DNA of 39,031 nt from Chloroflexi bacterium OHK40 (GTDB lineage: Bacteria > Chloroflexota > Chloroflexia > Chloroflexales > Chloroflexaceae). The notes under the pieces were generated by a model. The model had not been told where the DNA came from, made no database searches, and saw nothing but the letters and a program-made list of their open reading frames with translations. Positions within the stretch are counted from its first letter, which is position 1. The number at the start of each line of letters is the position of its first letter. The stretch lies in contig SFCB01000279.1 in NCBI GenBank assembly GCA_004367505.1, positions 1 through 39,031 on the forward strand, read 5' to 3'. Positions 11,288 to 31,557 of the stretch are shown here, piece by piece. The position numbers and the translations under genes are program-made.

Positions 11288-11360
11288 AGTCTTTTGCTCC
11301 CCCGCTACCGGGCGAAGCACGGTTCACTTGCCATCAAACCCTGGCTGGTGGGGTGCGCGA

Positions 11361-11433: not shown

Positions 11434-14400
11434 TTACGGGATGTTCACCCGCGTGTCGCCCTGGCCAGGGTTGAAGTCGGTGGCCGTGTCGGTGCCGGGG
11501 CCGCCGTCGAAGCGGTCGGCGCCCGAGCCGCCGGTGAGGGTGTCGTTGCCACCGCCGCCGAGCAGGGTGTCGTTGCCCGCGCCACCGGTGAGCTGATCAT
11601 CGTCGGCGCCGGCGTCAAGCGTGTCGTTGCCATCGCCACCGGTGAGGATATCGTTCCCCGCGCCGCTGATGAGCGCGTCGTTGCCTGAGCCGCCAGTGAG
11701 CGTGTCGTTCCCCGCGCCGCTGGTGAGCGTATCGTTGCCTGAGCCGCCGGTGAGCGTGTCGTTCCCCGCGCCGCTGGTGAGCGTGTCGTTCCCGTCGCCA
11801 CCATCGAGCTGGTTGTTGCCCTCGCCGGCGTTGAGCTGGTCGTTGCCCGTTCCGCCGGTGAGCGTGTCGTTTCCTGAGCCGCTCGTCAGCCGGTCGTCGC
11901 CGCTGCCGCCATCAAGCTGGTTGTCGCCCTCGCCGGCGTCGAGCTGGTCGTTGCCGCCCTGACCGATCAGCACGTCGTTGCCCGGGCCACCGGTCAGCCG
12001 ATCGTCACCGCTGTTGCCGTCGAGCCGGTCATTGTCGTCACCGCCATCCAGCTGGTCGTTGCCCGAGCCACCATCCAGGGTATCGTCGCCCGGGCCGGCG
12101 GTCAGCCGGTCGTCGCCGCCACCGGCGCAGAGCAGGTCGGCGCCGCCATTACCCGTGAGGACATCCTGCCCGCTGCCGGCGAAGAGGAAGTCGGCCCCGG
12201 CGCCGCCGGTGAGGGTGTCGTTGTTACTGCCACCGGCGTTCACCGTGATCGTCTGGGTCGCGGTGTTCACGCCGTCGCTCACGGTGATGGTGACGACTGC
12301 CATCCCGGTGCGGCCAGAGGCCGAGGTGATCGTGACGGTGCGGTTGGCGCCGCTGCCGCCGAAGCTGATATTGCCGTTCGGCACGAGCGTGGTGTTGGAC
12401 GAACTGGCGCTGAGGGTGAGGCCGGTCACACTGGTGTCGGGGTCGCCCAAGGCCAGATTCGCCCGCCCACGGAAGTCGGCGAGGCAGACACCGCCACCCG
12501 CGACAGAGATGGTTGGTGCCGCTGGCAGGATGGTGAGGCTGGCGCTCGCCGTCGCCGGCTCGTAGTAGCGGTCGCTCAGGCTGATCGCGCCGCCGGGGAG
12601 CGGCACCTCGCCGCTGAAGTAGACCGGTACGGCGTAGCTGCCTGCCGGCAGCGCAAGCGCGCCGAGGGGCGCGACGCCCTCGCCATCGGTGGTGCGTACG
12701 AAGCTCTGCCCGCCGATGATGAAGAAGAGCCGCTTATTGCCTACGCCCCGGTTGCCCGCATCGGTGAGCCGCACGCTGATGCCCGTATCCTGGCCGAAGG
12801 TGGCCGTGGCAGGCGCACCGGTTACGGTTGCGGTCGTGGCCTGACGCGCCAGGGTGAAGGGCGCCGTCACGAGCGAGGAGGCGAAGCCCTCGGCCCCGGC
12901 GAAGGTGGCCTGGATACTCAATTCGCCGGGTTGGTCGGTGAGCGGTAGCGTCACGGTGGCATTGCCGTCGTTGTCGGTGGGCGCGCTCAGGCTCACACCG
13001 CCGATGCTGAAGCTCACCGGCTGGCCCACGAGCGGCGTGCTGCCAGAGGCGAGCCGGGCGCTCAGCGCCACGCTATCGAGGTAGCGCCCCGAGGTGGGTG
13101 GGTTCAGTAGCGTGAGCGTGGTTGCCGCCGGCAGCGCCTCGCCCGGGGCTGGCGGCGCCGGGATGGCCGGATCGATGCCGGGGCTATAGTAGGCGCCGAA
13201 GTTGGTGAGCACGGCGACGAGGCCGTTGCCGCCGGCGGCCTGTACAAAGAAACGCACATCGGCGAGCGGGGTGGAGCCGCGCTCCGCCGCCGTCAGCGCG
13301 CCCGTCCACAGGGTCGGGTCACCCGCATCGAGGTCCAGCCTGAGCGACTGCCACTGGCCCAGGAGGCTGCCACTGAGCCCCGTATAGGTAACCCAGACCT
13401 CCTGCGTGCCAGCGGTGGCGCCCGCAGTGACGTTGACGCGGAAGGTGAGGTCATCGCCGTCGGCGCTGCTGGTGACGGCAGCAATAGCGGGTGGGCCATC
13501 CAGCGCGGCGCCGGCGACGGTGCTGTAGAAGAGCCGCAGCCGCATAGAATCGTAGGTGCGCAGGGTGCCGATCGGCGCGTCGGGGTTGTTGGAACGGTAC
13601 TGGGCCGGTTGCAGCATCAGCCGGGGCGAACCGTTCGGGTCGGTGAGCAGATCGTAGTAATTGAGCGACCACGGCTGCGTGGGGAAGAAGACACTGGAGC
13701 GGAAGGTGGGGTGGGGGCCGGCAAACTCCGAGGCCGGCACACTGGTGAGCACACGCACATCGGCGACGTCGGTATAGGTGGCAGCGAGCAGGAGCGTGCC
13801 GCGCACCACGTAGCCCACCTCGGATGGCGGCGCATCGACGTTGTGGCGTGAGAGCGGGAAGTAGGGCTGACCGGGCCTGGTGGCGTACCCATCGCGGCCC
13901 TCGACCTGCGTCCAGCTCTCTGGCTGGCCGGTGAGCAGGTTAATCAGCTCCACCGTGGTAGGCGTAACCGGGGTCGTAAAGGTAAGCTCGGCGGTCTTCA
14001 GGCCGAGCGGCGCGCCGGGGCCGGCGGGCACGGGGGCGAGCGCGGCAACCTCGGAGGCCGGCGCAGGCGGCGTAATGCGCGCCCCGAGCATATTCATGCG
14101 CTGCATCGGCAGGCCGAACATGGTGGGAATGAGCACCGTCTTCTCGTAGATCCCGTCGATCTCCACGCCGGTATCGGCGAGATAGGCCTGCTTGGCCTGA
14201 ACGAGGGCCTTGCCGATCGGGATGGCGCCCGTGCCGGTGCGCAGCTCGCGGGTGAAGTAGAGGTAAAGCCGCTCGCCGTACTCATCGAGGAGTTTGTCGC
14301 CGTACTGGTAGCCGGTTCCGGCGATCAGGGTCGCGCCACGAGCGGCGAAGGCCTCGGCCCAATCGGGCTCCTCGGCGCCGGCAGCGGCGTGAGCATCGAC

Positions 14401-17400
14401 GGTGTTGTAACCGGCGTGGCACCCCACACTATAGATCAGCGTATTGGCGAAGCTCGTGGGCGAGCTCACGATCTCCTGCGCCAGCAGCGTGTCGGCATAA
14501 TCGTAATTGGCGGCGAGCAGACTGCCGGCGGAGAAGTGCCCGGCCAGGTAGACGAGATCGTTGCGCGTGTTCACCAGCCTGGGCCGCAGATCAGCCGCCG
14601 ACCAGGAGGCGGGGTCGCTCGGGTCACGCTCGGCCGGATCGATCAGGGTATCGTCGAGGGTGGCCGTGGCACCCAGACCGGCCCGCAGCTGATCGGCCAG
14701 AGCGCGGGTGCCGTCCTCCAGCTGGCCGTAGCTCGTCACCAGGGCGCGGGTGGGGGTGATCACACCGCCCGAGGCGAGGTAGGCGTTCACCACCGCCAGG
14801 GCATCGCCGGCATCCTCCACCAGGCGACCGACGGCGAGATCGGGCAGCGGCAGTGTACTCTCCTGCAGGGAGATGATATTCGTCGTGCCGTACTCGTCCT
14901 GGCCGAGCACGTAGGCGAGCCGCAGGCTGGCCTGAGAGGTCGTGTCATCGCCGACGGGGGGCACAAAATCGGACTCGGGCGAGATCTGGGCCGGGTCGGG
15001 GTAACGGAAGAAGGGCATGATGTCGTCGTTGCCGACGAGCACCACATACTCAAGCGGGTTGAGCGCGCGGTACTTCTGCACGATCTCCTTGATCGTTCCG
15101 GCGTACTGGTTCATCGCGAAGGGGCAGCCGGTATTGCCGAGAGCCACACTGCGCGCGTCGCGCACCCGTGCATCATCGCTAACGTCCACCACCACACCCT
15201 GCACCTCGGGCCTGCCGCTGAGCACCCCGAGCTGGCTCAACAGGTCGGCCTTCTCCTGTGCGGTGCCGGCCATATTGTCGATATCGACGAGGAAGATCGT
15301 CTTGTAGTTACCGCTGGCGCCGCTGAGGGTGCTGGCGGCGAGGTTCAGGCGCACATTCGCGCAGGCGCCGGAGAGCAGGTCGACGCGCAGGTTGAAGGGC
15401 TGGGTAGGATTAAAGGCGCCATTGCGACCGGAGACGCGCACATAGAACTCGCCGGAGTTGTTCCAGCTGTTCACAACCACCCGTTCGTCGGCAGTGCCAC
15501 TGAGCGGCGAGTAGCCGATCACGCTCTGGATCTGGGCGTTGGAGAAGCCCAACGGGTTCGAGAAGCCCAGCCCGTTGGAGAAGCCCAACGGGTTCGAGAA
15601 GCCCAGCGGGTTCGAGAAGCCCAGCGGGTTCGAGAAGCCCAGCCCGTTATGGAAAGCCTCGGCGTTGGTGAAGGCATCGCCGTTGGAGAAGCCCAGCCCG
15701 TTGGAGAAGCCCAGCGGGTTCGAGAAGCCCAGCCCGTTGGAGAAGCCCAGCGGGTTCGAGAAACCCAGCGGGTTCGAGAAGCCCAGTGGGTTCGAGAAGC
15801 CCAGCCCGTTGGAGAAGGCCGAGGGGGCCGACTCGGTACTGAGCCTCGCCAGGCTCTGTTCGCCGGTGAGCTGCTGGTAGGCCTGGGCAATATCCTTAAA
15901 GACCACCAGGTCGTAGTCGGCCGCGAGGTTCGCGAGCGTCACCGAGACGGTCATGCCAGGGGTGACGCTGAACTTGAACCAGCGGGCCTCACCGCGCCGG
16001 GCGATCGCCTGGGTGCTCACAATCGCGCTTCGGGCATCAGCTGGACCGGTAAAGGTGGGCGTGAAGGCATCCGGCCAGATGTAGTTGTTCGGGCCAACCA
16101 CCTGGCAGTAGCTGAACTCGGAGGTACCGCCTGGACCGGTGGCCGTGGCGGTCACGAAGCGTCCATCGGGCAGAGCAGGCCCGCTGAACGTGAAGGCGAC
16201 GAGCCCGTCGGGGCCAGTGGTGACGCTCTGGCTGCCGAGGAAGCCCTCGCCCTCGCCGTAGAAGGTCGGATCGCAGCTCTGGCCGCTGTAAAAGTCGAGG
16301 GTGTAGCCGGTATTGGCCGCGCCGCTCAGGCCACCCGACACCAGCGTATTGACGCCGTTGTTAGCCGCGCCGAAGAGCACAGGGAAGTTCTGGAGCAGAT
16401 TGGGGCCGCTATCGCCGTCGCCGGTGTCGTTCGCCGTGACACTATCGCCGTTGAGGTCGATCCCGAGGGTTCCATTGCCGAAGATGCGATTGCGGCGGAT
16501 GGTATTGTTATCGGAGAAGACGCGGATGCCCTCGCTGCCGTTAAAGGCGATCAGGTTACCGGCCTCGGCCGTCGTGCCGCCAATCAGGTGGCTGCCGGTA
16601 TCGGTGAAGAGATCCAGCCCGGCGTTGGTGTTGCCACGCGGGGTGGCGCCATCGGCGGCGGTGCCGATCAGGTTGCCCTGGATGGTCGCGCCGAGCGCGG
16701 CCGCTCCCTCGAAGGCGATCCCGGTGTTGCTGTTGCCCGAGATCACGTTGCCAGCGCCAGGCGTGGTTCCACCAACGACGACGCCGGCGGCCTGAATACC
16801 GACGCCGTTGACGTTGGGAATAGCGGTGCTCCCATCGGCGCCGAGGCCGAGGTAGTTGCCGAGCATGCTGTTCCCGCTCTCACTCCCGTCCACCAGCACA
16901 CCATTGAAGCCGTTCCCGGCGATCACATTGCGCAGCGTGGCCGTGGCGCCGCCGACGGTATTGTTGGCAGAGCTGCTGATATGCACGCCGTGAAGCCCGT
17001 TGCCCAGGTCGAGCAGGCCGCTGGGGTCGGTACCGATGTAGTTGCCCTGGACGAGGTTGGCGCTAGTGGCGGTGCCGCCGATGAAGACGCCGTTGTTGGC
17101 GTTGCCCGCGATGACGTTGCGGTCGCCCAGGGAACCACCGCCGATCTGGGTCAGCGGCCCGAAGACGGCAATGCCGTTGAGGCCGTTGCCGAGGCCCGTG
17201 GTACCGGCGGCATCGGTGCCAACAAAGTTCCCCGCGATGGTGGTGCCCTGGACGGGGCTATCAACCTGGATGCCGTTGCCGAAGCTGGAGATGACGGTGT
17301 TACCACGCAGGCTGTTGCCGGCCACATCGACTCCCCAGAGCCAGATCCCGAGGGGGTTATTGGCCACCAGGTTATCGATCACCGTGTTGCCGGTGGTCGC

Positions 17401-20400
17401 GAGCAGGCCAGTGCCGCCGATCGCGATCCCGGAGTCGGAATTGGCGATCGGCGAGGTGCCATCGGGGCCGACCCCGACATAATTGCCCTGGACGGTGGTA
17501 TTGGCGACGTTGACGATCTCGATGCCACCGTTGAGGTTGCTACCTACCACGTTGCGGTCACCGGCTGATGGCCCACCGACGATATTGCCGCTCGAACAGT
17601 CGTTGAGGAGAATGCCCTCGAAGGCGTTGGGGATGGCGGCGCTACCGTCGAGGCTGAGGCCAACATAGTTACCAATAACCAGGTTGCCCGCGCCGGCGGC
17701 AGCGGCACAGCCCTCATGGCCGAGGGTCACCCCGGTGACGCCGTTGCCGGAGAGGATATTGCGGTCGCCCGGCGTGCTGCCGCCGATAATGTTGCCGCTC
17801 GCGCCAGCGGCCAGGCGCACACCGTCGTCAGCATTGGCCAGGGCGGCCGTGCCAGCGGCATTGGTGCCGACACGATTGCCAGCCACGCGGTTATTGGTCG
17901 CATCGGCCCCGCCGATACGCACACCCACCGCATCATTGCCCGCGATCTGGTTATCGCGGATGGTGTTGTTGGCCGAGTCGGCAATCTCGACACCGTGCTG
18001 GCCATTGCCCCGGTCGAGGGTGCCAATGACATCGGCGCCGATGATATTGCCCTGCACCGCCGTGCCCGTAGAGGCGGCGAGGAGGGTGACGCCATTGCCG
18101 ATGTTGGCAGAGATCAGATTACCGGCGCCGACCATGGGGCCGCCGATCACGTGGTTGGAGCCGCCATCGACATCGATGCCGCTCCCATTCGGGCGGGCGG
18201 TGCTACCGTCGGGCGCAAGGCCGATGTAGTTACCCTGGATGGTGTGCAAGACACCGCCCGCGATGCTGATCCCGGCACCAGTATTCGAGGCGATCACGTT
18301 GCGGTCGATCGTGCTGACACCACCGATCGTCACCGTGGAGCTGCCATTGCCGATGAAGATCCCGGAGCCGCTGTTGCCCAGGCCAGCAGCGCCCAGGGCG
18401 TTGGTGCCAATGAGATTGCCGACGATGCTGGTGCCGAACACCGCCCCGCCCAGATAGACCCCGTTGCCGGCGTTGTCGATGAGCGTATTGGCGCGAATGA
18501 CCGTATTCTGACCGGAGAAGTCGGTGATGCCGGCGAAGCCGTTGAAGGCGACCAGGTTGCCCTCACCGGGACCAGGCCCCCCGATCACGGTGCTCGGGGC
18601 GAAGTTATAGAGCGTAATACCGCCGTTCGTCCCCTCACCGAGATTGTTGCCGAGCGGCGTGACACCATCGGCGCCGACGCCCACATAGTTGCCCTGGACG
18701 ACCGTCGCGATGCTGGCACTCTGCCAGATCGAGACACCGTCGAGGAGGTTACCGGAGATTACATTGCGGGCACCGGCGGCGCCGCCGCCGATCTGGGCGC
18801 CGATCACGCTCCCGGTGTTGCCCGGAAGCAGCAGCACCCCGTACTGATTAGGCACGGCGCCCGTTCCGGCGGCGTTCGTGCCGATGTAGTTGCCCTGGAC
18901 GAGCAAGCCCGTCACCGCGCTCGACTGGGGCTCAACGAGGATTCCGGCGAAGGAGTGGCCGCCGACCACATTACCGGCGCCGGTGGCCGTGCCGCCAATA
19001 CGCACGCCGCTCCCGGCCAGCAGGCGCACCCCGGCGAAGGTATTCCCGACACTCGTGGTACCGTCGGCGCCAAGGCCGATGTAGTTGCCCTCGATCACAT
19101 GGCCGGTGCCGCTGCTCTCGATCGAAATGCCGTAGGTACCGTTCCCTCCGATCACGTTCCGGGTGTCGGCACTGGTGCCGCCCACCTGGGCACCCTGGCT
19201 ACCGATCAACGCGACGCCATTCTCGCTGTTGCCGAGCGATGCGGTGCCAGCGGCGTTGGTGCCGAGATAGTTGCCCTGGATTACGGTGCCGGTAGCGCCA
19301 GAACCAACGAAGATACCGCTGAAGGTATTGCCGGAGACGAGGTTGCGGTCGCCGGGGCTCCTGCCGCCCACCACGGCGCCGGTAGGCCCGTTGATATAGA
19401 TACCGCTATTCCCGTTGCCAAGATCGATCGTACCGGCGGGGTTGGCACCGATGACGTTGCCCTCGAAGGTCATGGGCACCGTCGTCTCGATCCCGTCCAG
19501 CGCGAAGCGATTGACCACCAGGCCGCGAACCACGCTCTCGTCGGCGCCAGCACCGAAGATCAGGCCGTCCGCCACACTGGCACCGGCGCCGTTGAGCTCG
19601 ATCAGCAGCGTGGCGTTGCTGCCGACGGCGAGGGTATTGGGAGCGGCACCAGGCTGGCTGTAGCCATCGAGAACCAGCGCATCGCTCACCGTGGGCAGCG
19701 CCGAGGTGGGGCTGATCGTCTGCACACCGGCGCCGGGAATGTCAAACAAGACCACATCGAGCCCGGCATCGACGTTGGCATCGAGCATGGCCTGGCGCAG
19801 CGAGCCCGCGCCGCTATCGTTGGTGTTGAGCACCAGGCGCGCCGCGCCCTCCACAGCGCCGATGTCGCAGGTACCGGCGCGAGGGCGCGCGCTCCCGCGC
19901 TGGTCGGTGGCGAGGGCCACAGCATCGGGGCCGAGGCAGCCACCCGCGCCAGCATCGAGGGCATTGCTCCCGGGGAGCGGAATGAGCGTAGGGGAGAGCC
20001 CACCATTGAGGCGAAGCGTCGTGCTGAGGTTCGTCACCGCGCCGAGGTTCCCGGCGGCCACACCACAACTGGCATCGTCGATCCGGTTGCCGGCGCCAGA
20101 ATTCCAGGCATCGCCAGCGCACTCGCTCCCGCTATTCCCGGTAAGGATACTGTTCTGCACACTCACGGTGGTCACACCACCGCCGCTGGTGGCGATCCCC
20201 CCGGCGCCGCCGCCGGCCGTGTTGTAGGCGATCGTGGAATTGAAGATCCTGGCAGTCTGGGTGCCGCCCGGAGCATTCACCGTGAAGAGCATCGCGCCGC
20301 TGCTGCTGCCGGCGGAGTTGAAAGCGATCGTGCTATTGACGATCGTCAGCGCCGTGGTGCCGCCGATATGGTCGCTCTGGATCGCGCCAGAGTCGCCGCT

Positions 20401-21048
20401 CGTCTGGTTACTGGCGATCGTGGAGCCGATCACCGTCAGGCTCCCGCCATAGTTATAAATTGCGCCGCCAGAACTACCGCTCTGGTTCTCGGTGATCGTA
20501 ACGCCGGTGAGGGTGGCGCTGCCCTGGTTGAAGAGCGCCGGACCGTTGGCCACACCGAAGACCGCGCCGGTGGTACCGTAGCGGAGCACAACGCCCGTGA
20601 GGTTCAGGCTCCCGCCGGGGAGCACATGGAAGATACGCCCGATACCGGCGCCGGGCGCGGGGCCCGCCTGGATGGTTGGCCGGCCCTTGATCCGCTCAAT
20701 CGTGATCGCGGAACTGATATCCAGGTCCTCGGTGGCCGCCCCATCTTCGCCAACACCGGCGAGCGTCAGCGTGTAGACGCCGTCTGGCAGGCTGATCGTA
20801 TCGGGGCCGGCCAGGGCGTTGGCCTCCTGGATGGCGGCCCGCAGCGTACACAGCCCCCCGGCTGTCGCACAGGCCCCATCGCCGGGGCTCGCATCCACGG
20901 CGTCGAGTGTACTATTGACGGTGATCGCAGCCGCGAGGACCGGCCCGGGCCAGGCAATGATGGCGCCCAGCAGCGCGACCGTGACAGCAAAGACCGTGAG
21001 CAGACGAACGAGCAGAATCGGCGCCGATGGTGCTGGTGACGTGTGCAT
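11434..21048 (-). CDS. Giant secreted CSLREA/beta-helix/C25 protease-like/RTX protein, 3204 residues
   Basis: A Sec signal peptide covers about 1-40 ([18 protein letters not shown], then VLAAA). A CSLREA-type motif follows ([16 protein letters not shown]). A right-handed parallel beta-helix runs from about 60 to 1530 with some 15 long units built on [13 protein letters not shown] and RNVISGN. A beta-sandwich lies at about 1565-1655. A PPC-like domain ([10 protein letters not shown] ... [17 protein letters not shown]) is split by 15 hexapeptides at 1748-1837. A C25/gingipain-like protease region spans about 1905-2330, with candidate dyad His2171 (YLAGHFSAG) and Cys2210 ([10 protein letters not shown]). 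Ig-like domains cover about 2600-2930, and 27 RTX nonapeptides (GGxGNDxLx) from about 2940 precede a [14 protein letters not shown] tail. The ATG at 21046-21048 directly precedes the signal peptide. An exported, calcium-dependent adhesin/protease is inferred. No dedicated secretion genes are adjacent. Confidence 0.93.
11463..12235 (-). repeat. RTX calcium-binding nonapeptide array, 27 units
   Basis: The C-terminal part of the giant protein is 27 consecutive nonapeptides of the form GGxGNDxLx. They include degenerate units such as AGEGDNQLD and SGAGNDTLT. At DNA level some 54-bp double units near 11690-11800 are almost identical, pointing to recent expansion. RTX arrays fold as a calcium-loaded parallel beta-roll outside the cell. 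Confidence 0.92.
15538..15807 (-). repeat. 15 tandem 18-bp repeats encoding (P/G)LGFSN hexapeptides
   Basis: The 270 bp encode residues 1748-1837 of the giant protein. Thirteen units are GLGFSN or PLGFSN and two middle units are diverged ([12 protein letters not shown]). The order shows a higher-level duplication: the block G-P-P-P-G-P (first residue of each unit) occurs twice, separated by GLGFSN and the two diverged units. A partial FSN precedes the array at 15808-15816. The units are in frame and coding, not a CRISPR array. Confidence 0.95.
16620..19480 (-). repeat. Long beta-helix repeats, about 15 units of roughly 60-70 residues
   Basis: Within the giant gene, VQGNYIG-type motifs (variants IEGNYIG, VIGNYVG, IAGNFVG) followed by a T(N/D)AAGT-type turn and (L)GN recur about 15 times. 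They alternate with GGT...DRNVISGN segments. The motif DNA is strongly conserved: plus-strand gtagttgccctgga recurs at many of these sites. Positions are approximate at the edges, where shorter beta-helix turns continue. Confidence 0.8.
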
Positions 21049-22327: not shown

Positions 22328-24073
22328 CTACGCTCGCCTGAGCCAGCGTACCCCGTAGGCCGGCAACTCGACGGCGAGGCTCCCATCGGGGGCCACGGCG
22401 AGGGTCTCGCCGCTCAGAAGTTCGGTGAAGGCGGCGCCGGGGCCGGCGGTATAGTGGACAACCCGGGGCGCGCCAGCGACGTTATGCAGGCAGAGGACGG
22501 ATCCGGAGGCGCCGGGTGCGCCACGCTCGATCGCGAAGAGCGCTGGCCCGAGATCAAGCACTCGCTGCGGGGCGGCGGGGTGGAAGGCGGGCTCGCGGCG
22601 CCGGGCGCGGATAAGATCGGCCATCCGCCGCAGCACGGCGCCCTCGCGCCGCGCCGGGTCCGCCAGGCGCGCCTCGAGCTCGGCCCGCTCCCACTTCTCG
22701 CGGTTGAGCGTGCGCGCCCGCCCCGTCTCGGTAAACCCGGCGTGGTTGTTCCCCGATCCAAGCAAGCTGTGGACGTAAACCCCCGGCACGCCCTGCAGCG
22801 CCAGCATGATCGCCTGCGAGCAGACGAATCGGTCGACCTGGCGCTCCCGGGGCTCAGCGCTCGCCGGATCGGAGAGGGCGTCGAACCAGGTGCAGTTCAG
22901 CTCGTAAGGGCTCTGGCTGCCGTCGGGATTGTTCTTGTAGGAGACGCGCCCGCCGTGGCGCTCGACCTGCGCACACAGGCCGGCGACCTCATCGGCGGTG
23001 AGGATGCCGGTGGCGGGCACCACCCCGATGCCGTCGTGGGAGGCGAGGAAGTTGAAGAAGGCTGTGGCCGGCGAAGGCGGCTCCAGGCCGGTGGCCCACC
23101 CGCTCAGGCGCGTGGCATCGCCGGTGGCGAAGGCGTGGAGCACGAGGGGCGCCAGGGGAAACTGGTAGACGAGCTGCGCCTCGTTGGTGCCGTCGCCGAA
23201 GTAGCTGATGTTATCGGCGTGGGGTACATTGGTCTCGGTGATCAGCAAAACCCCAGGCGCCACGGCGTCGAGGGAGGCGCGCCAGAGCTGCACCACGCGG
23301 TGGGCCTGGGGCAGGTGGATGCAGCGGGTGCCGATCTCCTTCCACAGGTAGCCGATCGCATCGAGGCGGATGAGGCCAGCGCCCCGCGCCACGTACTCGA
23401 GCAGCACAGCCGTCATCTCCAGGAGGAGCTCCGGACTGCCGTAGTTCAGATCGATCTGGTCGGCGCTGAAGGTCGTCCAGACATAGCGGGTGCCGCCGGG
23501 CGTCTCGAAAGGGGTGAGGAGCGGGGTCGTCCTGGGCCTGGTCACGGCGCGCAGGTCGGTACTCGGATCGACGATGTGGAAGCGCCGCTCGGCGCCAGGC
23601 ACACCGGCGAGGAAGTCGCGGAACCACTGGCTGCTGGCAGAGACGTGGTTCACCACGGCATCGAACATCAGGCGGTAGCTGCCCGCGAGGCGCTCCACGT
23701 CCTCCCAGGCGCCGAGGGCCGGGTCCACGGCGAGATAATCGACCACGGAGAAGCCATCGTCGGAGGTGTAGGGGTAGAAGGGCAGAATGTGCACGCCGCC
23801 GACGATCCCGGCGAAGGGGCCATCGAGGAGCTCGCTGAGGCTCTGGAGCGGGGGGCGACCGGGCTCGCGCACCTGGTCGCCGTAGGTGATCAGAATGACA
23901 TCATCCTGGGTGAGACGGTCGGCGGTTGACGGCTGGCGGCTGGCGGCTGGCAGCGGTCGGCTGGCGGCGAAGGTGGCGAGCATCGTCGCGAGTTGCGCAG
24001 CGGTGCTGGCGCCCACCTCAGGACCATAGATCGCCGCCAGGTGGTCGCGCATCCGGACGTGGGGGTCGTCCAT
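22328..24073 (-). CDS. GH13_18 phosphorylase, probably glucosylglycerate phosphorylase
   Basis: The 581-residue alpha-amylase-fold protein is of the sucrose-phosphorylase subfamily. GH13 regions are clear: ITYGDQ and GGVHILPFYPYTSDDGF, region I DAVVNHVS, region II GLIRLDAIGYLW (nucleophile Asp238), region III ITETNVPH (acid/base Glu280), region IV FLASHDGIG (Asp347). The LNYGSP motif and a C-terminal beta domain complete it. Subfamily members phosphorolyse alpha-glucosides such as sucrose or glucosylglycerate to glucose 1-phosphate. Its place beside GpgS favours glucosylglycerate, but sucrose phosphorylase is possible. The ATG at 24071-24073 (MDDPHVRMRD) has GAGGAGG 8 nt upstream; a longer ORF start has no such site. 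Residues 39-53 are an unusual low-complexity insertion. Confidence 0.88.
   Translation of the reverse strand: MDDPHVRMRDHLAAIYGPEVGASTAAQLATMLATFAASRPLPAASRQPSTADRLTQDDVILITYGDQVREPGRPPLQSLSELLDGPFAGIVGGVHILPFYPYTSDDGFSVVDYLAVDPALGAWEDVERLAGSYRLMFDAVVNHVSASSQWFRDFLAGVPGAERRFHIVDPSTDLRAVTRPRTTPLLTPFETPGGTRYVWTTFSADQIDLNYGSPELLLEMTAVLLEYVARGAGLIRLDAIGYLWKEIGTRCIHLPQAHRVVQLWRASLDAVAPGVLLITETNVPHADNISYFGDGTNEAQLVYQFPLAPLVLHAFATGDATRLSGWATGLEPPSPATAFFNFLASHDGIGVVPATGILTADEVAGLCAQVERHGGRVSYKNNPDGSQSPYELNCTWFDALSDPASAEPRERQVDRFVCSQAIMLALQGVPGVYVHSLLGSGNNHAGFTETGRARTLNREKWERAELEARLADPARREGAVLRRMADLIRARRREPAFHPAAPQRVLDLGPALFAIERGAPGASGSVLCLHNVAGAPRVVHYTAGPGAAFTELLSGETLAVAPDGSLAVELPAYGVRWLRRA
23915..23959 (-). 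repeat. Heptamer-like GC repeat inside the phosphorylase gene
   Basis: The plus strand here reads as imperfect 7-bp units around GGCTGGC/GCGGCTG. In frame on the minus strand they encode SRPLPAASRQPSTADR. The stretch lies between the first helix and the first (ITYGDQ) strand of the enzyme, where a flexible loop is tolerated. It looks like an in-frame mobile or slippage-prone repeat; similar SRQP-rich insertions are known to me from Chloroflexia proteins by memory only. Confidence 0.5.
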
Positions 24074-24280
24074 GGCCAGTCCTCCTCGTTGGCGCGTAAT
24101 GGGGAAGCGATGGGATGGGGGATCTCGCAGACGCCGCATAGCGCCGCGCCGGGCCGGGCCGTGGAGCGGGGTGCTGGATGGGCGATGCCGACCCGGCTGG
24201 GGAAGGCAGCTTCAGCGGAAGCGCCCCGCCGTCCTCCGCTGATGGATGGAGCGCCACCAGATCAGCGCGGCGGCGCACGA

Positions 24281-26146
24281 TCAGCCGTCCAGGCTCTCGG
24301 GGGGCAGGCCGCGCCGGCGGCGATACTCGGGGATGCGGGCCATCGGTGGGCGCTCGTGGTCACGGATCTCGCGCAGCTCCAGGTGGTAGCTGCCATCCTC
24401 GCGCTGCGTGATCAGCTTCATCGTCTGGTTCACCGGCTCGAGCAGGCTCACGCGCTGGCGCTGCTCCATGCGCTGGATGACCACCTGCGTGATCGCGAAG
24501 GCCATCTTGGAGAGCGGCACGAGCTCCTGGTTGCGGTGGATGCGCTCCAGCAAATCCACCTGAGCGAGGGCGTTCAGGCCGCGCTGTTCGAGCAGATCGA
24601 TCAGTAGGCCGGTCTCAACCCCGTAGCCGGTGAAGAAGGGCACCGCCTCGAGGGCGCTGCGGCGCCCGGCATACTCGCCAGAGAGGGGCTGGAGCATGCC
24701 CGAGAGCTCGGGGTAGAAGAGGTTCAGCAGGGGGCGAGCGGTCAGTTCCGTTACCCGGCCACCGCCACTGGCCGCGATGCGCTCGCCGAACTGGATGGGC
24801 CGGCGATAGAAGCCCTTGCAGTAATCCAGGCGACGCTCGCGGAGCAGCGGCCCAAGCACGCCGTAGACGAAGCGCGGGTGGAAGTTCTTAATGTCGGTGT
24901 CGCACCAGGCGATAATGTCGCCGGAGAGCACATAGAGGCTCTTCCAGAGCGCCTCGCCCTTGCCGACGAAGGCGCCGTACTGGGGCAAGATCTCCTGGTG
25001 AATGAAGACGGGCACGCCATGGGCGGCGGCGATCTCGCGGGTGCGGTCATCGGAGCCGCTGTCGATCAGCACCAACTCGTCCAGCAGCGGCACCTCCTCT
25101 ACCAGGGCGCGCCGGGTGCGGGCGATGATCTCGCCGATCGTCTCCTCTTCGTTGAGCGTGGGCAGGGCGAGGCTAACCGTCACACCCTGCTGCTGCTTGA
25201 GGGCGAGCAAGCGCTGAAGATCGTCGTACTCGGTGGAACTGAAGGTATTCTCGGCAAACCAGCGATCCACGGTGGCCGAGAGATCGCGATGCTGCTGCCA
25301 GATCTGCTGGGCCTGCTCCTCGGCCTGCGCCATGCGATGGCGCACGAGCACCACCGTGGTATCGGCGTTGCGCAGGATGCGGTCGGCGAGGGGGCCGATC
25401 GGCGCCTCGGGGTCGCCACGGCGACCGGTGACCCCGATCACGATCGCCTGGTGGTCGGGCGCCTCGGCGAGGATGGCCTGCTCGGCGGGGATGGTGCGCT
25501 CGAGCAGGCGGGTGACGCGGGGCATACTGCGGAGCGACTGAAGGCTCTCGCGCACGGCGGTATCGTCGGGGAGGCGCGGGTTGGCCGCGTAGAGCACGCT
25601 GATCGTCGCCTCGTGGCGCTCGGCGAGGGCCAGGGCCACATCGCAGGCGAGGCCGGTATGGGGGCCGCCGCGCACCGGCAGCAGCACCCGCTTCCAGGGC
25701 TCCCCATCCCGCAGGCGCACCACGACCACATCGCAGGGCGGCTGGCGCAGCAGGCTGTCGATCGGCGGGCCGAAGAGGCGCTCCGAGGACGACTGCTTGG
25801 CCTGCCAGCCGAGGAGGATCAAGCTCGCCCGCTGCTCCTCAGCGGCGGTACGGATCCCGTCGGTGAGATCGTGGGCGACCGTCGCGATGGTGCGCACCGG
25901 TACGCCGGCCTCGTCGAAGCTCACGGCAGCATCGTAGCCGGCACGGATGCGCCGGGCCTCCAGCATCCCCTCGCTGAGTGGCTGGCCCCGGGGCACCACC
26001 ACCACGCCAAGGATTACCACCTGGCCGCCCTGCTGCCGGGCGAGAGCCGCAGCCATGGGCAACATCAGCCGGGCCTTCTCCGGGTCGCTTGCGGGCAGCA
26101 GGATGACGGAGTGGCTCGAGCCGTTTCGCTCGTGAAGTTCGCTCAT
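24281..26146 (-). CDS. gpgS: Two universal-stress-protein domains fused to glucosyl-3-phosphoglycerate synthase (GT81)
   Basis: The product is 621 residues. Two USP-type alpha/beta domains span about 12-145 (SVILLPASDPEKARLMLP; LLGWQAKQSSSERLFG) and 151-270 (KRVLLPVRGGPHTGLA; VIGVTGRRGDPEAPIGPLAD). After a charged helix (271-320) comes the GpgS catalytic domain (about 322-600). It has VSLALPTLNEEETIGE, the metal-binding CDTDIKNFHP (DTD 416-418), KGFYRRPIQ, GGGRVTELTARPLL, LQPLSGEYAGRR and GYGVETGLLIDL. GpgS transfers glucose from an NDP-sugar to 3-phosphoglycerate, the first step to glucosylglycerate, a compatible solute. The ATG at 26144-26146 has AAGGAG 7 nt upstream. The USP part may bind ATP and tie solute synthesis to stress or energy state (inference). 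A dephosphorylating GpgP is not seen nearby. Confidence 0.9.
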   Translation of the reverse strand: MSELHERNGSSHSVILLPASDPEKARLMLPMAAALARQQGGQVVILGVVVVPRGQPLSEGMLEARRIRAGYDAAVSFDEAGVPVRTIATVAHDLTDGIRTAAEEQRASLILLGWQAKQSSSERLFGPPIDSLLRQPPCDVVVVRLRDGEPWKRVLLPVRGGPHTGLACDVALALAERHEATISVLYAANPRLPDDTAVRESLQSLRSMPRVTRLLERTIPAEQAILAEAPDHQAIVIGVTGRRGDPEAPIGPLADRILRNADTTVVLVRHRMAQAEEQAQQIWQQHRDLSATVDRWFAENTFSSTEYDDLQRLLALKQQQGVTVSLALPTLNEEETIGEIIARTRRALVEEVPLLDELVLIDSGSDDRTREIAAAHGVPVFIHQEILPQYGAFVGKGEALWKSLYVLSGDIIAWCDTDIKNFHPRFVYGVLGPLLRERRLDYCKGFYRRPIQFGERIAASGGGRVTELTARPLLNLFYPELSGMLQPLSGEYAGRRSALEAVPFFTGYGVETGLLIDLLEQRGLNALAQVDLLERIHRNQELVPLSKMAFAITQVVIQRMEQRQRVSLLEPVNQTMKLITQREDGSYHLELREIRDHERPPMARIPEYRRRRGLPPESLDG

Positions 26147-26306
26147 CGGTCGCTCCTTCTCAGCCTCATGGTTGGTCCGTTGCCGCCATCGTACACAGCT
26201 CCTGCCGATCGCCAGTTTCAGGCCCCTCGGCACTCCTGGCATCACCGTGCTGGCGGCTGCACCGAACGGTCCTGCCAGCGAAGCGGGCCGTCCGGCGTGG
26301 AGGCGC

Positions 26307-27590
26307 TCACCTGGCCAGGCCGGCGCGGACGGGGGCGGCGGCTGGGTCCGGTCGCTCTTCCAGCAGCGGCACAATGTCGCGGCGGTAGATCGCCTCCCAG
26401 GTGTAGGTCGTGCGGACGCGACGGCGCAGGCTGTAGCGCGGGTCGGCTGCGAGGGCCGCCGCGATGCGCCGCCCGATCAGCTCCGGGTCGTCGTCGAGCC
26501 GGAAGGGGTGCGCGGCGGGGCCGGCGGTGGCCCGCAGTGGCGGAATGTCGCTGCAGAAGATCGGCAGGCCGCTCAGGCCAGCCTCCAGCACGGGAATGCC
26601 AAAACCTTCATAGCGGCTCGGGAAGAGCAGCCCATCGGCCAGGTGGAAGAGATCGGCCAGCATGGCATCGGACACCGGGCGCGGCTGGCCGGCTTCGTCG
26701 GTGAAGCGCTCGTAGAGAAAGATCACGCCCTCACCTGCACCACTGGCCTCGCGCAGAGCCAGCAACTCGGCCAGGTACGCGGCGTTGGACGGGTTGTGGG
26801 GCCCGGGTGGCCCCGTCACAACCAGGCGGGCATCGTTGCCCTGGCGCCGCATCGCGCCGATGATCGCAACAGCGAGCTCAATATTCTTGCGGCGCGTCAC
26901 CCGGGCGGGCAGCAGCAGCAGCGGCGCCGCCTCCAACAGCCCCAGGCGCTCCGCCAGCGCGACTGTCTCAGGCTCCAGCTTGAGGAAGGAGGCCAGATCG
27001 ACCCCCGGCGTCACCACCGCCACATCGGCCTGGTTCAGCCCCAGCAAGCCCGCCAGCATCGCGCGCCGATCCTCGGAGACCACAACGTAGCGAACGCCGT
27101 GCCAGGCCTCGCGCAGCAGGTCCCAGGGGTAGCCAGCGTGGAGCTCAGGGGTATAGAGCGGATCGAGCCAGGCGAAGTCGTGGCACCAGGCGAGCAGACG
27201 CGGCGCCGCACCGGCCTCGTGGAGGCGCCGGAGGGCTGCGGTGAAGGCCAGGTTCTTATGCAGGCTGAGGACATTATGTACAATGGCCACCTCGCAGCCG
27301 GCGAGGGCCTCGGCGAGCCACGAGGCCAGGCGCTCGACGAGGGCATAAAAAGCATCGCTCACCACCCCGGCGGCCAACTCGCGGGCCAGCCGCTCGGCCA
27401 GCTCGCCGCGTGAACCGAGTTCGGGCAGCAGGCGCAGCTCCACCCCGGGGCCAACCTCACCGCCCTTGCCAGCCACGATCCGCACCGGGCGACCGTGGGC
27501 GGCCAGCACGTGGGCATGGGCGGCCATCGTCATCTCGACGCCGCCCACATATGGCGGGCCAGCAAAGTGGAGCATGGCAACAGCGCTCAC
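26307..27590 (-). CDS. GT4 glycosyltransferase, candidate mannosylglucosylglycerate synthase
   Basis: The 427-residue GT-B enzyme has the N-terminal glycine-rich loop (HFAGPPYVGGVEMTMAAHA), AIVHNVLSLHKNLAFTAALR, CHDFAWLDPLYTPELH, VVTPGVDLASF, LLLPARVTRRKNIELA and the donor-binding E-x7-E region YEGFGIPVLEAGLSG. It starts at GTG 27588-27590, overlapping the GH63 stop as GTGA, with GGGGAG 7 nt upstream. This marks translational coupling to the preceding gene; an ORF start 45 nt earlier lies inside GH63. Flanked by glucosylglycerate genes, it may add mannose to glucosylglycerate (MggS-type reaction, known from Rhodopirellula and Petrotoga). A general sugar transferase role is the alternative. 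Confidence 0.85.
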   Translation of the reverse strand: MSAVAMLHFAGPPYVGGVEMTMAAHAHVLAAHGRPVRIVAGKGGEVGPGVELRLLPELGSRGELAERLARELAAGVVSDAFYALVERLASWLAEALAGCEVAIVHNVLSLHKNLAFTAALRRLHEAGAAPRLLAWCHDFAWLDPLYTPELHAGYPWDLLREAWHGVRYVVVSEDRRAMLAGLLGLNQADVAVVTPGVDLASFLKLEPETVALAERLGLLEAAPLLLLPARVTRRKNIELAVAIIGAMRRQGNDARLVVTGPPGPHNPSNAAYLAELLALREASGAGEGVIFLYERFTDEAGQPRPVSDAMLADLFHLADGLLFPSRYEGFGIPVLEAGLSGLPIFCSDIPPLRATAGPAAHPFRLDDDPELIGRRIAAALAADPRYSLRRRVRTTYTWEAIYRRDIVPLLEERPDPAAAPVRAGLAR

Positions 27591-29356
27591 GAGATCTCTC
27601 CCCGGCTCATACGGATGGCCAGATCGATGAAGCACGCCGCCGACCAGCCGAACATCGGCGCGGCCTTGGGCGGGGGCTCGCCGGTGAGGGGGTGGTAGTA
27701 CTCGTAGATGTCGGGCTGGCCCATCACCAGGCGCAGGGTAGCCTCGGCGAGCGTACCGGCCAGCGCCGCGTTACCGGTACGTTGCAAGGCCTCCACAAAG
27801 ATGTAGTTGATATTGATCCAGACCGGGCCGCGCCACATCTGCTGCGGGTCGTGCTTGGGATCGCTGAGAGCCACAGTGGGCAGCGGGTGGGTCGGCCAGA
27901 AGGAAGCCGGATCGCGCAGATGGGCCAGCAGGCGCTCGTTGATGCTCGCTGGCAGCCTGCCCGTCCAGAGCGGATAGAGGCTAAAGGGCGTGAGCACGCG
28001 GATCGGCCGGTGCTCGTGCTGCGACCAGAAGAGGCCGGCCTCGGCGTCGTAGAAATGCTCGACGATTCGCCGGGCGAGGGCGTCGGCCCGGCTCTTCCAG
28101 ATCGTGGCTTCGCGCATCCGTCCGAGGATGCGGGCCATCTTGCCGAGCGACTCCATCTGCAGGCAGAGGTAGGTATTCAGGTCAACCGCCTCCACCGGCA
28201 TGCCTTCGTCCCAGAGCGGGCTATCGTCAAGGCCGGAGGAGAAGGGGTGCGAGTACTGGGCAATCCCGTCGGCGTCGTCGTCGTTGAGGCCGAACCACCA
28301 GGAGTTCCAGCGCACCAGGGGCTCATAAATCTCCCGGAGCATGGCGTGATCGCCCGTCTGCTCATAGACGTGCATGGCCACCCAGGCGATAATCGGCGGC
28401 TTGGTAACGGCGGCTGCCACCGGCACTTCGAGCTGGGTGATCGTGCCCTCATCGTAGACGGCGTCGGGGATCATCCCATCGGGGAGCTGGTGGTCGAGCA
28501 TGAACTGGATCTGGTCGCTGGCGAGGCGCGGGTCCGTGTAGCGGAAAGCCAGCGCGTGGAAGTAGTTATCCCACTGCCATGCGCCCACATAGTGAGCTTT
28601 GGAGGGCGCCACGCTCTCGCGGCGGAAGAGGCCGTAGGGCGCGAGAATGTTGTTGCCCAGCACCCACCAGGCGTAGTAGTACTGGCTGCGGTAGGGCTCG
28701 TGGACGGCGGGCACGGCGGCGAACCAGCGGTTCCAGCGCTCCTCGGCGGCGGCGAGGGTCGCGCGGAAGGGCTTAACGGCCCGGCTCAGATCCAGCCCGG
28801 CCTGGATGTGCAGGGTGATGGCGGTATCGGCATCGCCCTGGGCGGTGAGGATCACATCGTAGCCGCTCCCATTGTGCTCCACCTGGTTGAGCACGAGCGC
28901 GCCGTTGGTTGAGTAGCTACAATTGCGCACCGACTTGAACTCGCCACCGTGGCCATCCGGGCGGGCCAGGTCGGGCACCACGGTAAAACTGATCCCACTC
29001 GGCACGCCGCTGGGGAGCCCGAAGCTCAGGGTCCGGTCGTCCTGAAACGCGCAGCGAAACTCGCCGAGGGGGGTCTGGAAGACGATCGCGTGGGGATAGG
29101 TGGTGGCCTGGAAGGGGACGGGGCGGCCCTCGCCGTCGGTCAGACGCAGGCGAGGAATGAAGGGCGGACGGCTACGGTAGGCGGAGAGGCCGGGGGTGAG
29201 CGCCGTCAGGCGCTCGGCGAGCTTCAGGTAGAGCGTGTGGGGTTGTCGTCGGTCCTGGTAGAGCAGCAGCCGGGAGCCACGGTCGCTGAACGGGATGCGG
29301 TCGAGATGAATGCGGTTCTCGAGGGCGAGCAGATAGGGCGACGCGGGCACATACAC
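27587..29356 (-). CDS. GH63-like glycoside hydrolase, probable glucosylglycerate/mannosylglycerate hydrolase
   Basis: The 589-residue protein has an N-terminal beta-sandwich of about 200 residues and an (alpha/alpha)6 barrel. Barrel motifs are VGAWQWDNYFHALAF (candidate acid Asp263), DHQLPDGMIPDAVYDEG, SPLWDEGMPVEAVDLNTYLC, WRGPVWININYIFVEAL and, near the end, IYEYYHPLTGEPP with FGWSAACFIDL (the Glu in YEYY is a candidate base). This is the pattern of the GH63 group that includes the mannosylglycerate and glucosylglycerate hydrolases MgH/GgH, which are shorter than this protein. It probably releases glucose and glycerate from glucosylglycerate in the cytoplasm, as no signal peptide is present. 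The start is GTG 29354-29356 with AGGGA about 9 nt upstream. It is first in a two-gene unit with the GT4. Confidence 0.83.
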   Translation of the reverse strand: MYVPASPYLLALENRIHLDRIPFSDRGSRLLLYQDRRQPHTLYLKLAERLTALTPGLSAYRSRPPFIPRLRLTDGEGRPVPFQATTYPHAIVFQTPLGEFRCAFQDDRTLSFGLPSGVPSGISFTVVPDLARPDGHGGEFKSVRNCSYSTNGALVLNQVEHNGSGYDVILTAQGDADTAITLHIQAGLDLSRAVKPFRATLAAAEERWNRWFAAVPAVHEPYRSQYYYAWWVLGNNILAPYGLFRRESVAPSKAHYVGAWQWDNYFHALAFRYTDPRLASDQIQFMLDHQLPDGMIPDAVYDEGTITQLEVPVAAAVTKPPIIAWVAMHVYEQTGDHAMLREIYEPLVRWNSWWFGLNDDDADGIAQYSHPFSSGLDDSPLWDEGMPVEAVDLNTYLCLQMESLGKMARILGRMREATIWKSRADALARRIVEHFYDAEAGLFWSQHEHRPIRVLTPFSLYPLWTGRLPASINERLLAHLRDPASFWPTHPLPTVALSDPKHDPQQMWRGPVWININYIFVEALQRTGNAALAGTLAEATLRLVMGQPDIYEYYHPLTGEPPPKAAPMFGWSAACFIDLAIRMSRGEIS

Positions 29357-30554: not shown

Positions 30555-31433
30555 TCACCGTGCCACCCGCTCGTAGCCGATCAGCGCGCCGGCCACCCAG
30601 GTGGGCGGCGGCGCATTGTAGAGCTCCGAGGCGTCGGTGTAGACAAGATCGTAGATTGTGCCGCGCAGGGACCCTCGGAGCAGGCTGATCACCTGCCCGG
30701 CATCACGATGGTCGCTCTTGGCGCTCACGCAGTGCTGGTTGTAGCCCCAGTGGTCGCCGCGCCCCAGGAGCTCCATGCCCTCCTCGATCCGCCGGCGGGC
30801 CAGGGCCAGGCCCCGCTCGTCGGGCGGCAGCGAGGCTTCGGGGGCATCGCCGTAGCCGATCCCGTGGTGGAAGGGGTCGGCGGTGGAGACGATCACCGCG
30901 TCGCGGGCAATCGCGACCAGTTCATCGATGCCGGGCAGCTCCTCGGGCTTGCCGCCGGCCAGGTAGGGGTAGCGCTCGATCACCCGGGGCACCCGCGCGC
31001 CGAGTCCACGCCGGCGTGTCTCCAACTCCCAGAAGAAGCGCCAGCTGATCAGCGCGTGGTCACTGGCCCAGTTGTCGCCGCGCGCCAGCCCCGGCCCCTG
31101 GATGCCCCAACTCGCCTCGGCGCTCGGCGGCCCACCGGCGGCCACGCGGCGCCGGGCCTGCTCCATCTCCTCAGTGAAGGCATGGAGCACACTCACCACC
31201 AGCACCGTGTCGGCGCCGCTGTCCAGCGCCGCGTGGACCGCCGCCGCGATCTGGTGACCGCAATCGGCCACGCCCGCGTGGGGGAAGACCACCACACCGC
31301 CGGCCCGCAGCAGCGGCGCGAGGTCCCACTGGCGGGCCTGCTCCAGCAGCCGCAGCCCACCCGCCTCACCGAGCGCCGCGTGCTCGTCCCGGTACAGCTT
31401 GAGGATCTTCTCTTGCAGCTCATCCCGTTGCAT
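30555..31433 (-). CDS. Memo/LigB-fold-like metal-binding protein of unknown function
   Basis: The 292-residue soluble protein has histidines set as in the Memo/extradiol-dioxygenase (LigB) fold: [15 protein letters not shown] (His52, His60), VVSVLHAF (His84), [14 protein letters not shown] (His189/190) and [12 protein letters not shown] (His234, Cys235). The PHAG...SVLH spacing recalls AmmeMemoRadiSam system protein B, but the similarity is partial and I saw no radical-SAM or AMMECR1 partner nearby, so the assignment is tentative. The start at [10 protein letters not shown] (ATG 31431-31433) has AGGAGGAG 8 nt upstream; the ORF continues 54 nt further without such support. It is followed after 7 bp by the alcohol dehydrogenase and preceded by the amidohydrolase, a likely three-gene unit. 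Confidence 0.6.
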
Positions 31434-31557
31434 GGCGCCTGCTCCTCCTGACACCTGATAGCTCGTCCGCACGGCCCGTTTCCTCATCGCTCCCAGTCAC
31501 CGCCGGGGCGCCCGGTCGCGGCACGCTGCCGCCCTCCAGCGACGGTTCGGTGACACC

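What the first reader, a model, noticed from the sequence alone, without database searches (positions are those of the whole stretch)
22328..29356. Glucosylglycerate island with synthesis and two opposite breakdown routes
GpgS (first step), a GT4, a GH63 MgH/GgH-like hydrolase and a GH13_18 phosphorylase lie in one block on one strand. Known: GpgS/GpgP make glucosylglycerate; GH63 GgH hydrolyses it; GH13_18 GGaP phosphorolyses it. Having both hydrolysis (glucose) and phosphorolysis (glucose 1-phosphate) beside the synthase implies a managed carbon/osmolyte store: build under stress, then recover with or without energy saving.
Basis: partly seen in the sequence, partly recalled or inferred. Interest (0 to 1): 0.68.

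Follow-up and report, generated by a model that had tools for sequence, protein, structure and literature searches.

The report
Glucosylglycerate make-and-recycle operon
A real, conserved four-gene block in filamentous green bacteria probably builds and recycles a small sugar-acid stress solute, but one of its two supposed breakdown enzymes lacks the parts needed to recognise that solute and may instead act on a larger version made by the enzyme encoded next to it.

Summary
[quoted passage not shown] In all 18 Chloroflexales genomes compared (window included) the order is GH63-GT4-GpgS, with the phosphorylase directly after GpgS in 11. The GH13_18 enzyme carries both published glucosylglycerate-phosphorylase (GGaP) signatures, and GpgS passes its curated cut-off. 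The GH63 protein is not a glucosylglycerate/mannosylglycerate hydrolase by signature: all 35 aligned members lack the 58-residue cap carrying Arg216/Tyr222 and have Tyr375->Met and Gln115->Lys, while keeping the sugar-binding and catalytic residues. The overlooked GT4 is tied to GpgS (60 of 66 genomes within 2.5 kb), its start overlaps the GH63 stop (GTGA), and GGaP occurs only in GpgS genomes that also have the GT4 (41/66 versus 0/31). Best reading: GT4 adds a sugar to glucosylglycerate, GH63 removes it, and GGaP then phosphorolyses the core, in series rather than as opposite routes. GpgS is fused to two universal-stress domains across the phylum. No GpgP lies in the block; Anaerolineae relatives carry a histidine phosphatase beside GpgS. 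Substrates remain unproven.

The parts
27587..29356 (-). GH63-clade (MGH1-like) glycoside hydrolase, 589 aa: N-terminal beta domain plus (alpha/alpha)6 catalytic domain; catalytic acid D377 (28226-28228) and base E552 (27701-27703)
   Evidence: PF22422 241 bits; AF2 pLDDT 94; Z 45.9 to YgjK over 551 aa, Z 44.9/43.9 to TtMgH/MhGgH catalytic domains; residue mapping
27587..27590 (-). GTGA overlap of the GH63 stop codon and GT4 start codon (translational coupling)
   Evidence: Sequence; stop and start overlap in 16 of 25 related loci
26307..27590 (-). GT4a, retaining GT-B glycosyltransferase, 427 aa; acceptor and donor unknown
   Evidence: PF00534/PF13439; best curated hits weak (MSMEG_0565 63 bits, mannosylglucosylglycerate synthase 42 bits); GT-B model
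24281..26146 (-). USP-USP-GpgS fusion, 621 aa
   Evidence: PF00582 x2; NF010496 above cut-off; PDB GT81 hits; fused open frame of 599 aa or more in 27 of 27 loci
25340..26104 (-). Two universal stress protein domains at the N-terminus of GpgS; canonical ATP motif degenerate
24329..25273 (-). GT81 GpgS catalytic domain with DTD metal motif and GRVTEL 3-phosphoglycerate-site motif
   Evidence: the roles of the two motifs are from general knowledge of GpgS
22328..24073 (-). GH13_18 2-O-glucosylglycerate phosphorylase (GGaP), 581 aa
   Evidence: 44% identity to E. coli YcjM
23228..23239 (-). TETN motif at beta5, GGaP signature
   Evidence: Alignment; signature from PMC7178133
22895..22912 (-). SPYELN loop A with GGaP-specific Glu
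   Evidence: Alignment; signature from PMC7178133 and PMC6720575

Best explanation
The block is an operon for making and mobilising a glucosylglycerate-based solute. GpgS, carrying two stress-protein domains that probably tune it, makes glucosyl-3-phosphoglycerate. A phosphatase encoded elsewhere gives glucosylglycerate. GT4a adds a further alpha-hexose to glucosylglycerate or its phosphate. On demand the GH63 hydrolase removes that outer hexose, and GGaP phosphorolyses the remaining glucosylglycerate to glucose 1-phosphate and glycerate, which a glycerate kinase in the genome can use. The two breakdown enzymes thus act one after the other. Shown here: gene identities, conservation, GGaP and GpgS signatures, loss of most glycerate-recognition residues in GH63, linkage statistics. 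Inferred: GT4a product, GH63 substrate, order of action, regulation by the USP domains.
For: GGaP: TETN and loop-A Glu invariant, as in E. coli YcjM. GpgS above its curated cut-off. GH63: the -1 sugar site and catalytic pair are invariant (Y256, W260, W262, D263, D377, W508, E552) while the cap with Arg216/Tyr222 is absent and Gln115->K319, Trp177->F372, Tyr375->M507 in 35 of 35. The GgH-type protein L076 used as a control reaches 411 bits against the window's 95 on NF047898. GH63 and GT4a overlap translationally. Across 300 Chloroflexota genomes GT4a occurs with GpgS in 66 of 68 and within 2.5 kb on the same strand in 60; all 19 GH63+GpgS genomes have GT4a; GGaP is in 41/66 GpgS+GT4a genomes and 0/31 GpgS genomes without it. 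Anaerolineae clusters add mannosylglucosylglycerate-synthase-like GT4s (210-248 bits full length) beside GH63 and a His_Phos phosphatase after GpgS. Glycerate kinase-type gene present.
Against: No activity is shown for any protein here. Several Anaerolineae loci hold GH63 with GGaP but no GT4a or GpgS within range; in L149 and L171 a LacI regulator and sugar ABC transporter lie between them, so GH63 can work without a local GT4a. Tyr36 and Trp40, two of the glycerate-contacting residues of MhGgH, are kept. GT4a matches the mannosylglucosylglycerate synthase model only weakly (42 bits against a cut-off of 640). Profile counts are not corrected for phylogeny, and the genome is a draft in 301 contigs.
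Confidence: 0.45

Rival explanations
1. One reading: GH63 hydrolyses glucosylglycerate itself (a diverged GgH) while GGaP phosphorolyses the same molecule, giving two parallel recovery routes with and without energy saving.
For: GH63 and GGaP share loci across classes, including L149 and L171 without a local GT4a; the catalytic domain superposes on TtMgH/MhGgH with rmsd 1.6-1.9; Tyr36 and Trp40 are conserved; a beta-domain loop could supply new glycerate contacts (inference).
Against: Arg216, Tyr222, Tyr375, Gln115 and Trp177 are lost in all 35 sequences, and Tyr88 in nearly all; 95 bits against a 550 cut-off; best whole-length fold is YgjK; leaves the translationally coupled GT4a unexplained.
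Confidence: 0.25
2. GH63 is a YgjK-like alpha-glucosidase for an unrelated small glycoside (for example kojibiose, trehalose or sucrose), merely stationed in a general sugar-recovery operon.
For: Full-length match to YgjK Z 45.9 over 551 residues; Lys at the Gln115 site as in YgjK TKP; PRK10137 scores slightly above GgH.
Against: Strong and specific linkage to GT4a and to the GpgS/GGaP pathway; Met507 is shared neither with YgjK nor with GgH.
Confidence: 0.17
3. The product is a longer glucosylglycerate-primed oligo- or polysaccharide, like mycobacterial methylglucose lipopolysaccharide, with GT4a and other GTs elongating and GH63 trimming.
For: Some relatives carry several GTs in the cluster (L205: GGaP, two GT4b, GT4a, GpgS, phosphatase); the GT4a model matches GlgM and a mycobacterial MMP mannosyltransferase among many GT4s.
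Against: Only the four genes are conserved in the Chloroflexales block, so no methyl- or acyltransferase or branching gene goes with it; one or two GTs suggest a short glycan.
Confidence: 0.1

Closest known systems
GpgS/GpgP plus GGaP glucosylglycerate metabolism (Meiothermus, Spirochaeta, E. coli YcjM; Franceus et al., reviewed in PMC7178133)
   Same: GpgS next to a GH13_18 enzyme with TETN and loop-A Glu; the review reports that GGaP genes are frequently accompanied by GpgS, GpgP or glycerate kinase genes
   Different: Adds a coupled GT4 and a GH63 clade; GpgS fused to two USP domains; no GpgP or glycerate kinase in the block
Mycobacterial GgH and Thermus MgH (GH63; PMC6608630)
   Same: (alpha/alpha)6 catalytic domain, catalytic Asp/Glu and -1 site conserved
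   Different: Has an extra N-terminal beta domain; lacks the cap with Arg216/Tyr222; Tyr375->Met, Gln115->Lys
E. coli YgjK (GH63 alpha-glucosidase)
   Same: Same two-domain layout, best whole-length structural match, Lys in TKP
   Different: Only 23% structural identity; 589 against about 760 residues; different neighbourhood
Mannosylglucosylglycerate (MGG) pathway of Petrotoga and Rhodopirellula (MggS, NF041101; solute reported in PMC3694870)
   Same: GpgS followed by a GT4 that extends glucosylglycerate (from general knowledge of that pathway); an MggS-like GT4b sits in related Anaerolineae clusters and elsewhere in this genome
   Different: GT4a itself scores only 42 bits against the 640-bit MggS cut-off; MGG not shown in these bacteria

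Membership tests
2-O-glucosylglycerate phosphorylase (GGaP, GH13_18) | (T/S)ETN motif at beta-strand 5 | tested here: met
   T301-E302-T303-N304, invariant in 11 sequences including YcjM
2-O-glucosylglycerate phosphorylase (GGaP, GH13_18) | Glu instead of Gln in loop A | tested here: met
   Y412-E413-L414-N415, Glu invariant
2-O-glucosylglycerate phosphorylase (GGaP, GH13_18) | Strict phosphorolysis of glucosylglycerate, none of sucrose | not testable with these tools
   Needs enzyme assay
Glucosyl-3-phosphoglycerate synthase (GpgS, GT81) | Curated equivalog cut-off | tested here: met
   NF010496 372.9 bits against a cut-off of 262
Glucosyl-3-phosphoglycerate synthase (GpgS, GT81) | Glucosyl rather than mannosyl donor | tested here: inconclusive
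   Best PDB match is Rubrobacter MpgS (259 bits) above GpgS entries (207-212 bits); the adjacent GGaP argues for glucosyl
Glucosylglycerate hydrolase / mannosylglycerate hydrolase (GH63 GgH/MgH) | Catalytic Asp182 and Glu419 | tested here: met
   D377 and E552, invariant in 35
Glucosylglycerate hydrolase / mannosylglycerate hydrolase (GH63 GgH/MgH) | Glycerate-contacting Arg216, Tyr375 and Tyr88 of MhGgH (with water-mediated Tyr222 and Gln115) | tested here: not met
   Cap with Arg216/Tyr222 deleted, Tyr375->Met, Gln115->Lys, Tyr88->Gln
Glucosylglycerate hydrolase / mannosylglycerate hydrolase (GH63 GgH/MgH) | Curated GgH equivalog cut-off | tested here: not met
   NF047898 95 bits against a cut-off of 550; the GgH-type control L076 reaches 411, also below 550
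Mannosylglucosylglycerate synthase (MggS) | Curated equivalog cut-off | tested here: not met
   GT4a 42 bits against a cut-off of 640
YgjK alpha-glucosidase | Curated equivalog cut-off | tested here: not met
   NF007525 109 bits against a cut-off of 625

The most novel reading that the evidence does not exclude
Chloroflexota (and some Armatimonadota) make an extended glucosylglycerate, probably hexosyl-glucosylglycerate, through a stress-domain-regulated GpgS and a dedicated GT4, and recycle it with a new GH63 specificity that trims the outer sugar before phosphorolysis: a solute cycle not found in the papers held here.
Probability: 0.4. Interest if true: 0.6.

Novelty: new variant of a known kind. 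Interest (0 to 1): 0.45.

Why it matters
It would correct an easy mis-annotation (MGH1-like GH63 as GgH), give a GH63 clade and a GT4 clade a testable substrate, and show how a stress-related domain could be wired directly onto the first enzyme of a compatible-solute pathway across a phylum that includes hypersaline anoxygenic phototrophs. If the GH63 and GGaP steps are serial, the claimed choice between wasteful hydrolysis and energy-saving phosphorolysis disappears.

Tried and rejected
GpgP in the block: none. TIGR01486 gives no match above its cut-off in the genome; there are seven full-length His_Phos_1 candidates, none of the five scanned reaches a phosphatase equivalog for glucosyl-3-phosphoglycerate, and none is clearly orthologous to the Anaerolineae neighbour gene. 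A second GgH/MgH in the genome: none, only the window gene matches. Sigma-70 promoters and terminators: nothing above the shuffled background. Rfam: nothing. Canonical ATP-binding USP domains: the motif is degenerate. GT4a acceptor from fold comparison: many GT4s tie, uninformative. Papers joining GpgS and universal stress protein: none held. The original GGaP paper and the Mycolicibacterium hassiacum GgH physiology paper are not held.
Full report
What is there. The minus strand of 22328-29356 carries four genes in the order GH63, GT4, GpgS, GH13_18. Start codons were refined: GH63 at GTG 29356; GT4 at GTG 27590, which overlaps the GH63 stop as GTGA; GpgS at ATG 26146 and GH13_18 at ATG 24073, both behind purine-rich ribosome-binding-like sites. 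The flanking genes (alcohol dehydrogenase upstream, haemolysin-III-like downstream) are not conserved with the block. The window is contig C95 of a 6.9-Mb draft genome.

Conservation. GH63-GT4-GpgS in this order and strand occurs in the window and in all 17 other Chloroflexales genomes that hold the GH63 gene. The GH13_18 gene follows GpgS directly in 11 of the 18, lies elsewhere in four, and cannot be placed in three because contigs end. A scan of named genomes found the same genes in rearranged orders in Anaerolineae, a Thermomicrobiales MAG, Armatimonadota and others, with the GT4 repeatedly just upstream of GpgS. In 300 Chloroflexota genomes, GT4a and GpgS co-occur in 66 of 68 GT4a genomes, 60 of them within 2.5 kb on one strand. 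GGaP co-occurs with GpgS in 41 of 45, and among GpgS genomes it is found only where GT4a is present (41/66 versus 0/31). GH63 co-occurs with GT4a in 20 of 22. These counts are not corrected for shared ancestry.

GH13_18. The protein is 44% identical to E. coli YcjM, annotated as glucosylglycerate phosphorylase. It has the TETN motif and the loop-A glutamate that the literature gives as distinguishing GGaP from sucrose phosphorylase and most other GH13_18 specificities (PMC7178133, PMC6720575). I accept it as GGaP by signature; activity is untested. The same review states that GpgS and GpgP genes are frequent neighbours of GGaP, so that pairing is not new.

GpgS. The curated GpgS model is passed, and the GT81 DTD and GRVTEL motifs are conserved. 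The nearest solved structure is the Rubrobacter mannosyl-3-phosphoglycerate synthase, so donor specificity is not settled by sequence; the GGaP neighbour favours glucose. The gene also encodes two universal stress domains in front of the enzyme. The fused open frame is 599 aa or more in all 27 loci measured, and the arrangement extends to lineages without GT4a or GGaP. The ATP-binding motif of these domains is degenerate. No held paper mentions both terms, which is weak evidence of novelty.

GH63. The fold supports kinship: Z 44.9 to Thermus MgH and 43.9 to MhGgH over the catalytic domain, but the best full-length match is YgjK, Z 45.9 over 551 residues (model pLDDT 94). Residues were mapped through L076, a relative that aligns end to end with MhGgH and TtMgH, and by profile comparison. 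The glucose site and both catalytic residues are invariant across 35 members. Of the glycerate-contacting residues given in PMC6608630, Tyr36 and Trp40 remain, while Tyr88 and Tyr375 are replaced and Arg216 (with Tyr222) lies in a 58-residue cap segment that is absent from every member; Gln115 is Lys throughout. The curated GgH score is 95 against a cut-off of 550, while L076 scores 411. The claim that it is a GgH therefore fails a defining feature; whether it nonetheless hydrolyses glucosylglycerate is open.

GT4. It is a GT-B retaining transferase without a close characterised relative. Translational overlap with GH63 recurs: in 16 of 25 related loci the GT4 start overlaps the GH63 stop. In Anaerolineae an additional GT4 that matches the mannosylglucosylglycerate synthase model over its full length (210-248 bits, below the 640 cut-off) lies beside GH63 in clusters that also hold GGaP. 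A 60% identical copy of it exists elsewhere in this genome (219 bits). Together these suggest that glucosylglycerate is extended.

Mechanism. Best-supported path: 3-phosphoglycerate and NDP-glucose to glucosyl-3-phosphoglycerate (GpgS), to glucosylglycerate (phosphatase elsewhere; Anaerolineae place a His_Phos_1 protein right after GpgS), to hexosyl-glucosylglycerate (GT4a); recovery by GH63 removing the outer hexose and GGaP yielding glucose 1-phosphate and glycerate, with a glycerate kinase-type gene on another contig. Gene identities and conservation are shown; substrates, order and regulation are inferred. Evidence that complicates this: L149 and L171 have GGaP and GH63 flanking a LacI regulator and sugar ABC transporter without GT4a or GpgS, which suggests uptake of a substrate for both enzymes. 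An imported extended glycerate, or direct hydrolysis of glucosylglycerate, would each fit.

Verdict. Observation confirmed; interpretation partly supported; a new variant of known glucosylglycerate metabolism rather than a new kind of system.

Noticed in passing
window 11434-21048 (-): 3204-aa secreted protein with long repeats, a run of [12 protein letters not shown] units, a CSLREAIQEAN-like start and a C-terminal GGxGxD (RTX-like) repeat tail.
   Followed up: no
window 7562-11320 (-): 1252-aa protein combining an adenylate/guanylate cyclase domain, an AAA ATPase and TPR repeats.
   Followed up: no
window 30555-31487 (-): 310-aa protein with no Pfam or NCBIfam match, between an alcohol dehydrogenase and an amidohydrolase.
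   Followed up: no
L215 8921-10288 (G000:C192): Mannosylglucosylglycerate-synthase-like GT4 (219 bits) elsewhere in the same genome, next to a weakly amylase-like protein and a KefC/CPA2-type K+ antiporter.
   Followed up: partly
L149 1357-9746 and L171 1324-9755: Anaerolineae loci where a LacI regulator and sugar ABC transporter lie between GGaP and GH63, without GpgS: a likely uptake-and-use locus.
   Followed up: partly
L132 7677-8924: A second, 24% identical GH63-like gene directly after the GH63 gene and before GT4a.
   Followed up: no
L205 1-8200: Cluster with GGaP, two MggS-like GT4 genes, GT4a, USP-USP-GpgS and a histidine phosphatase in a row, but no GH63.
   Followed up: partly
L095 32-1857: In G016 the GpgS gene is split in two frames near residue 321, possibly a frameshift or assembly error.
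   Followed up: no
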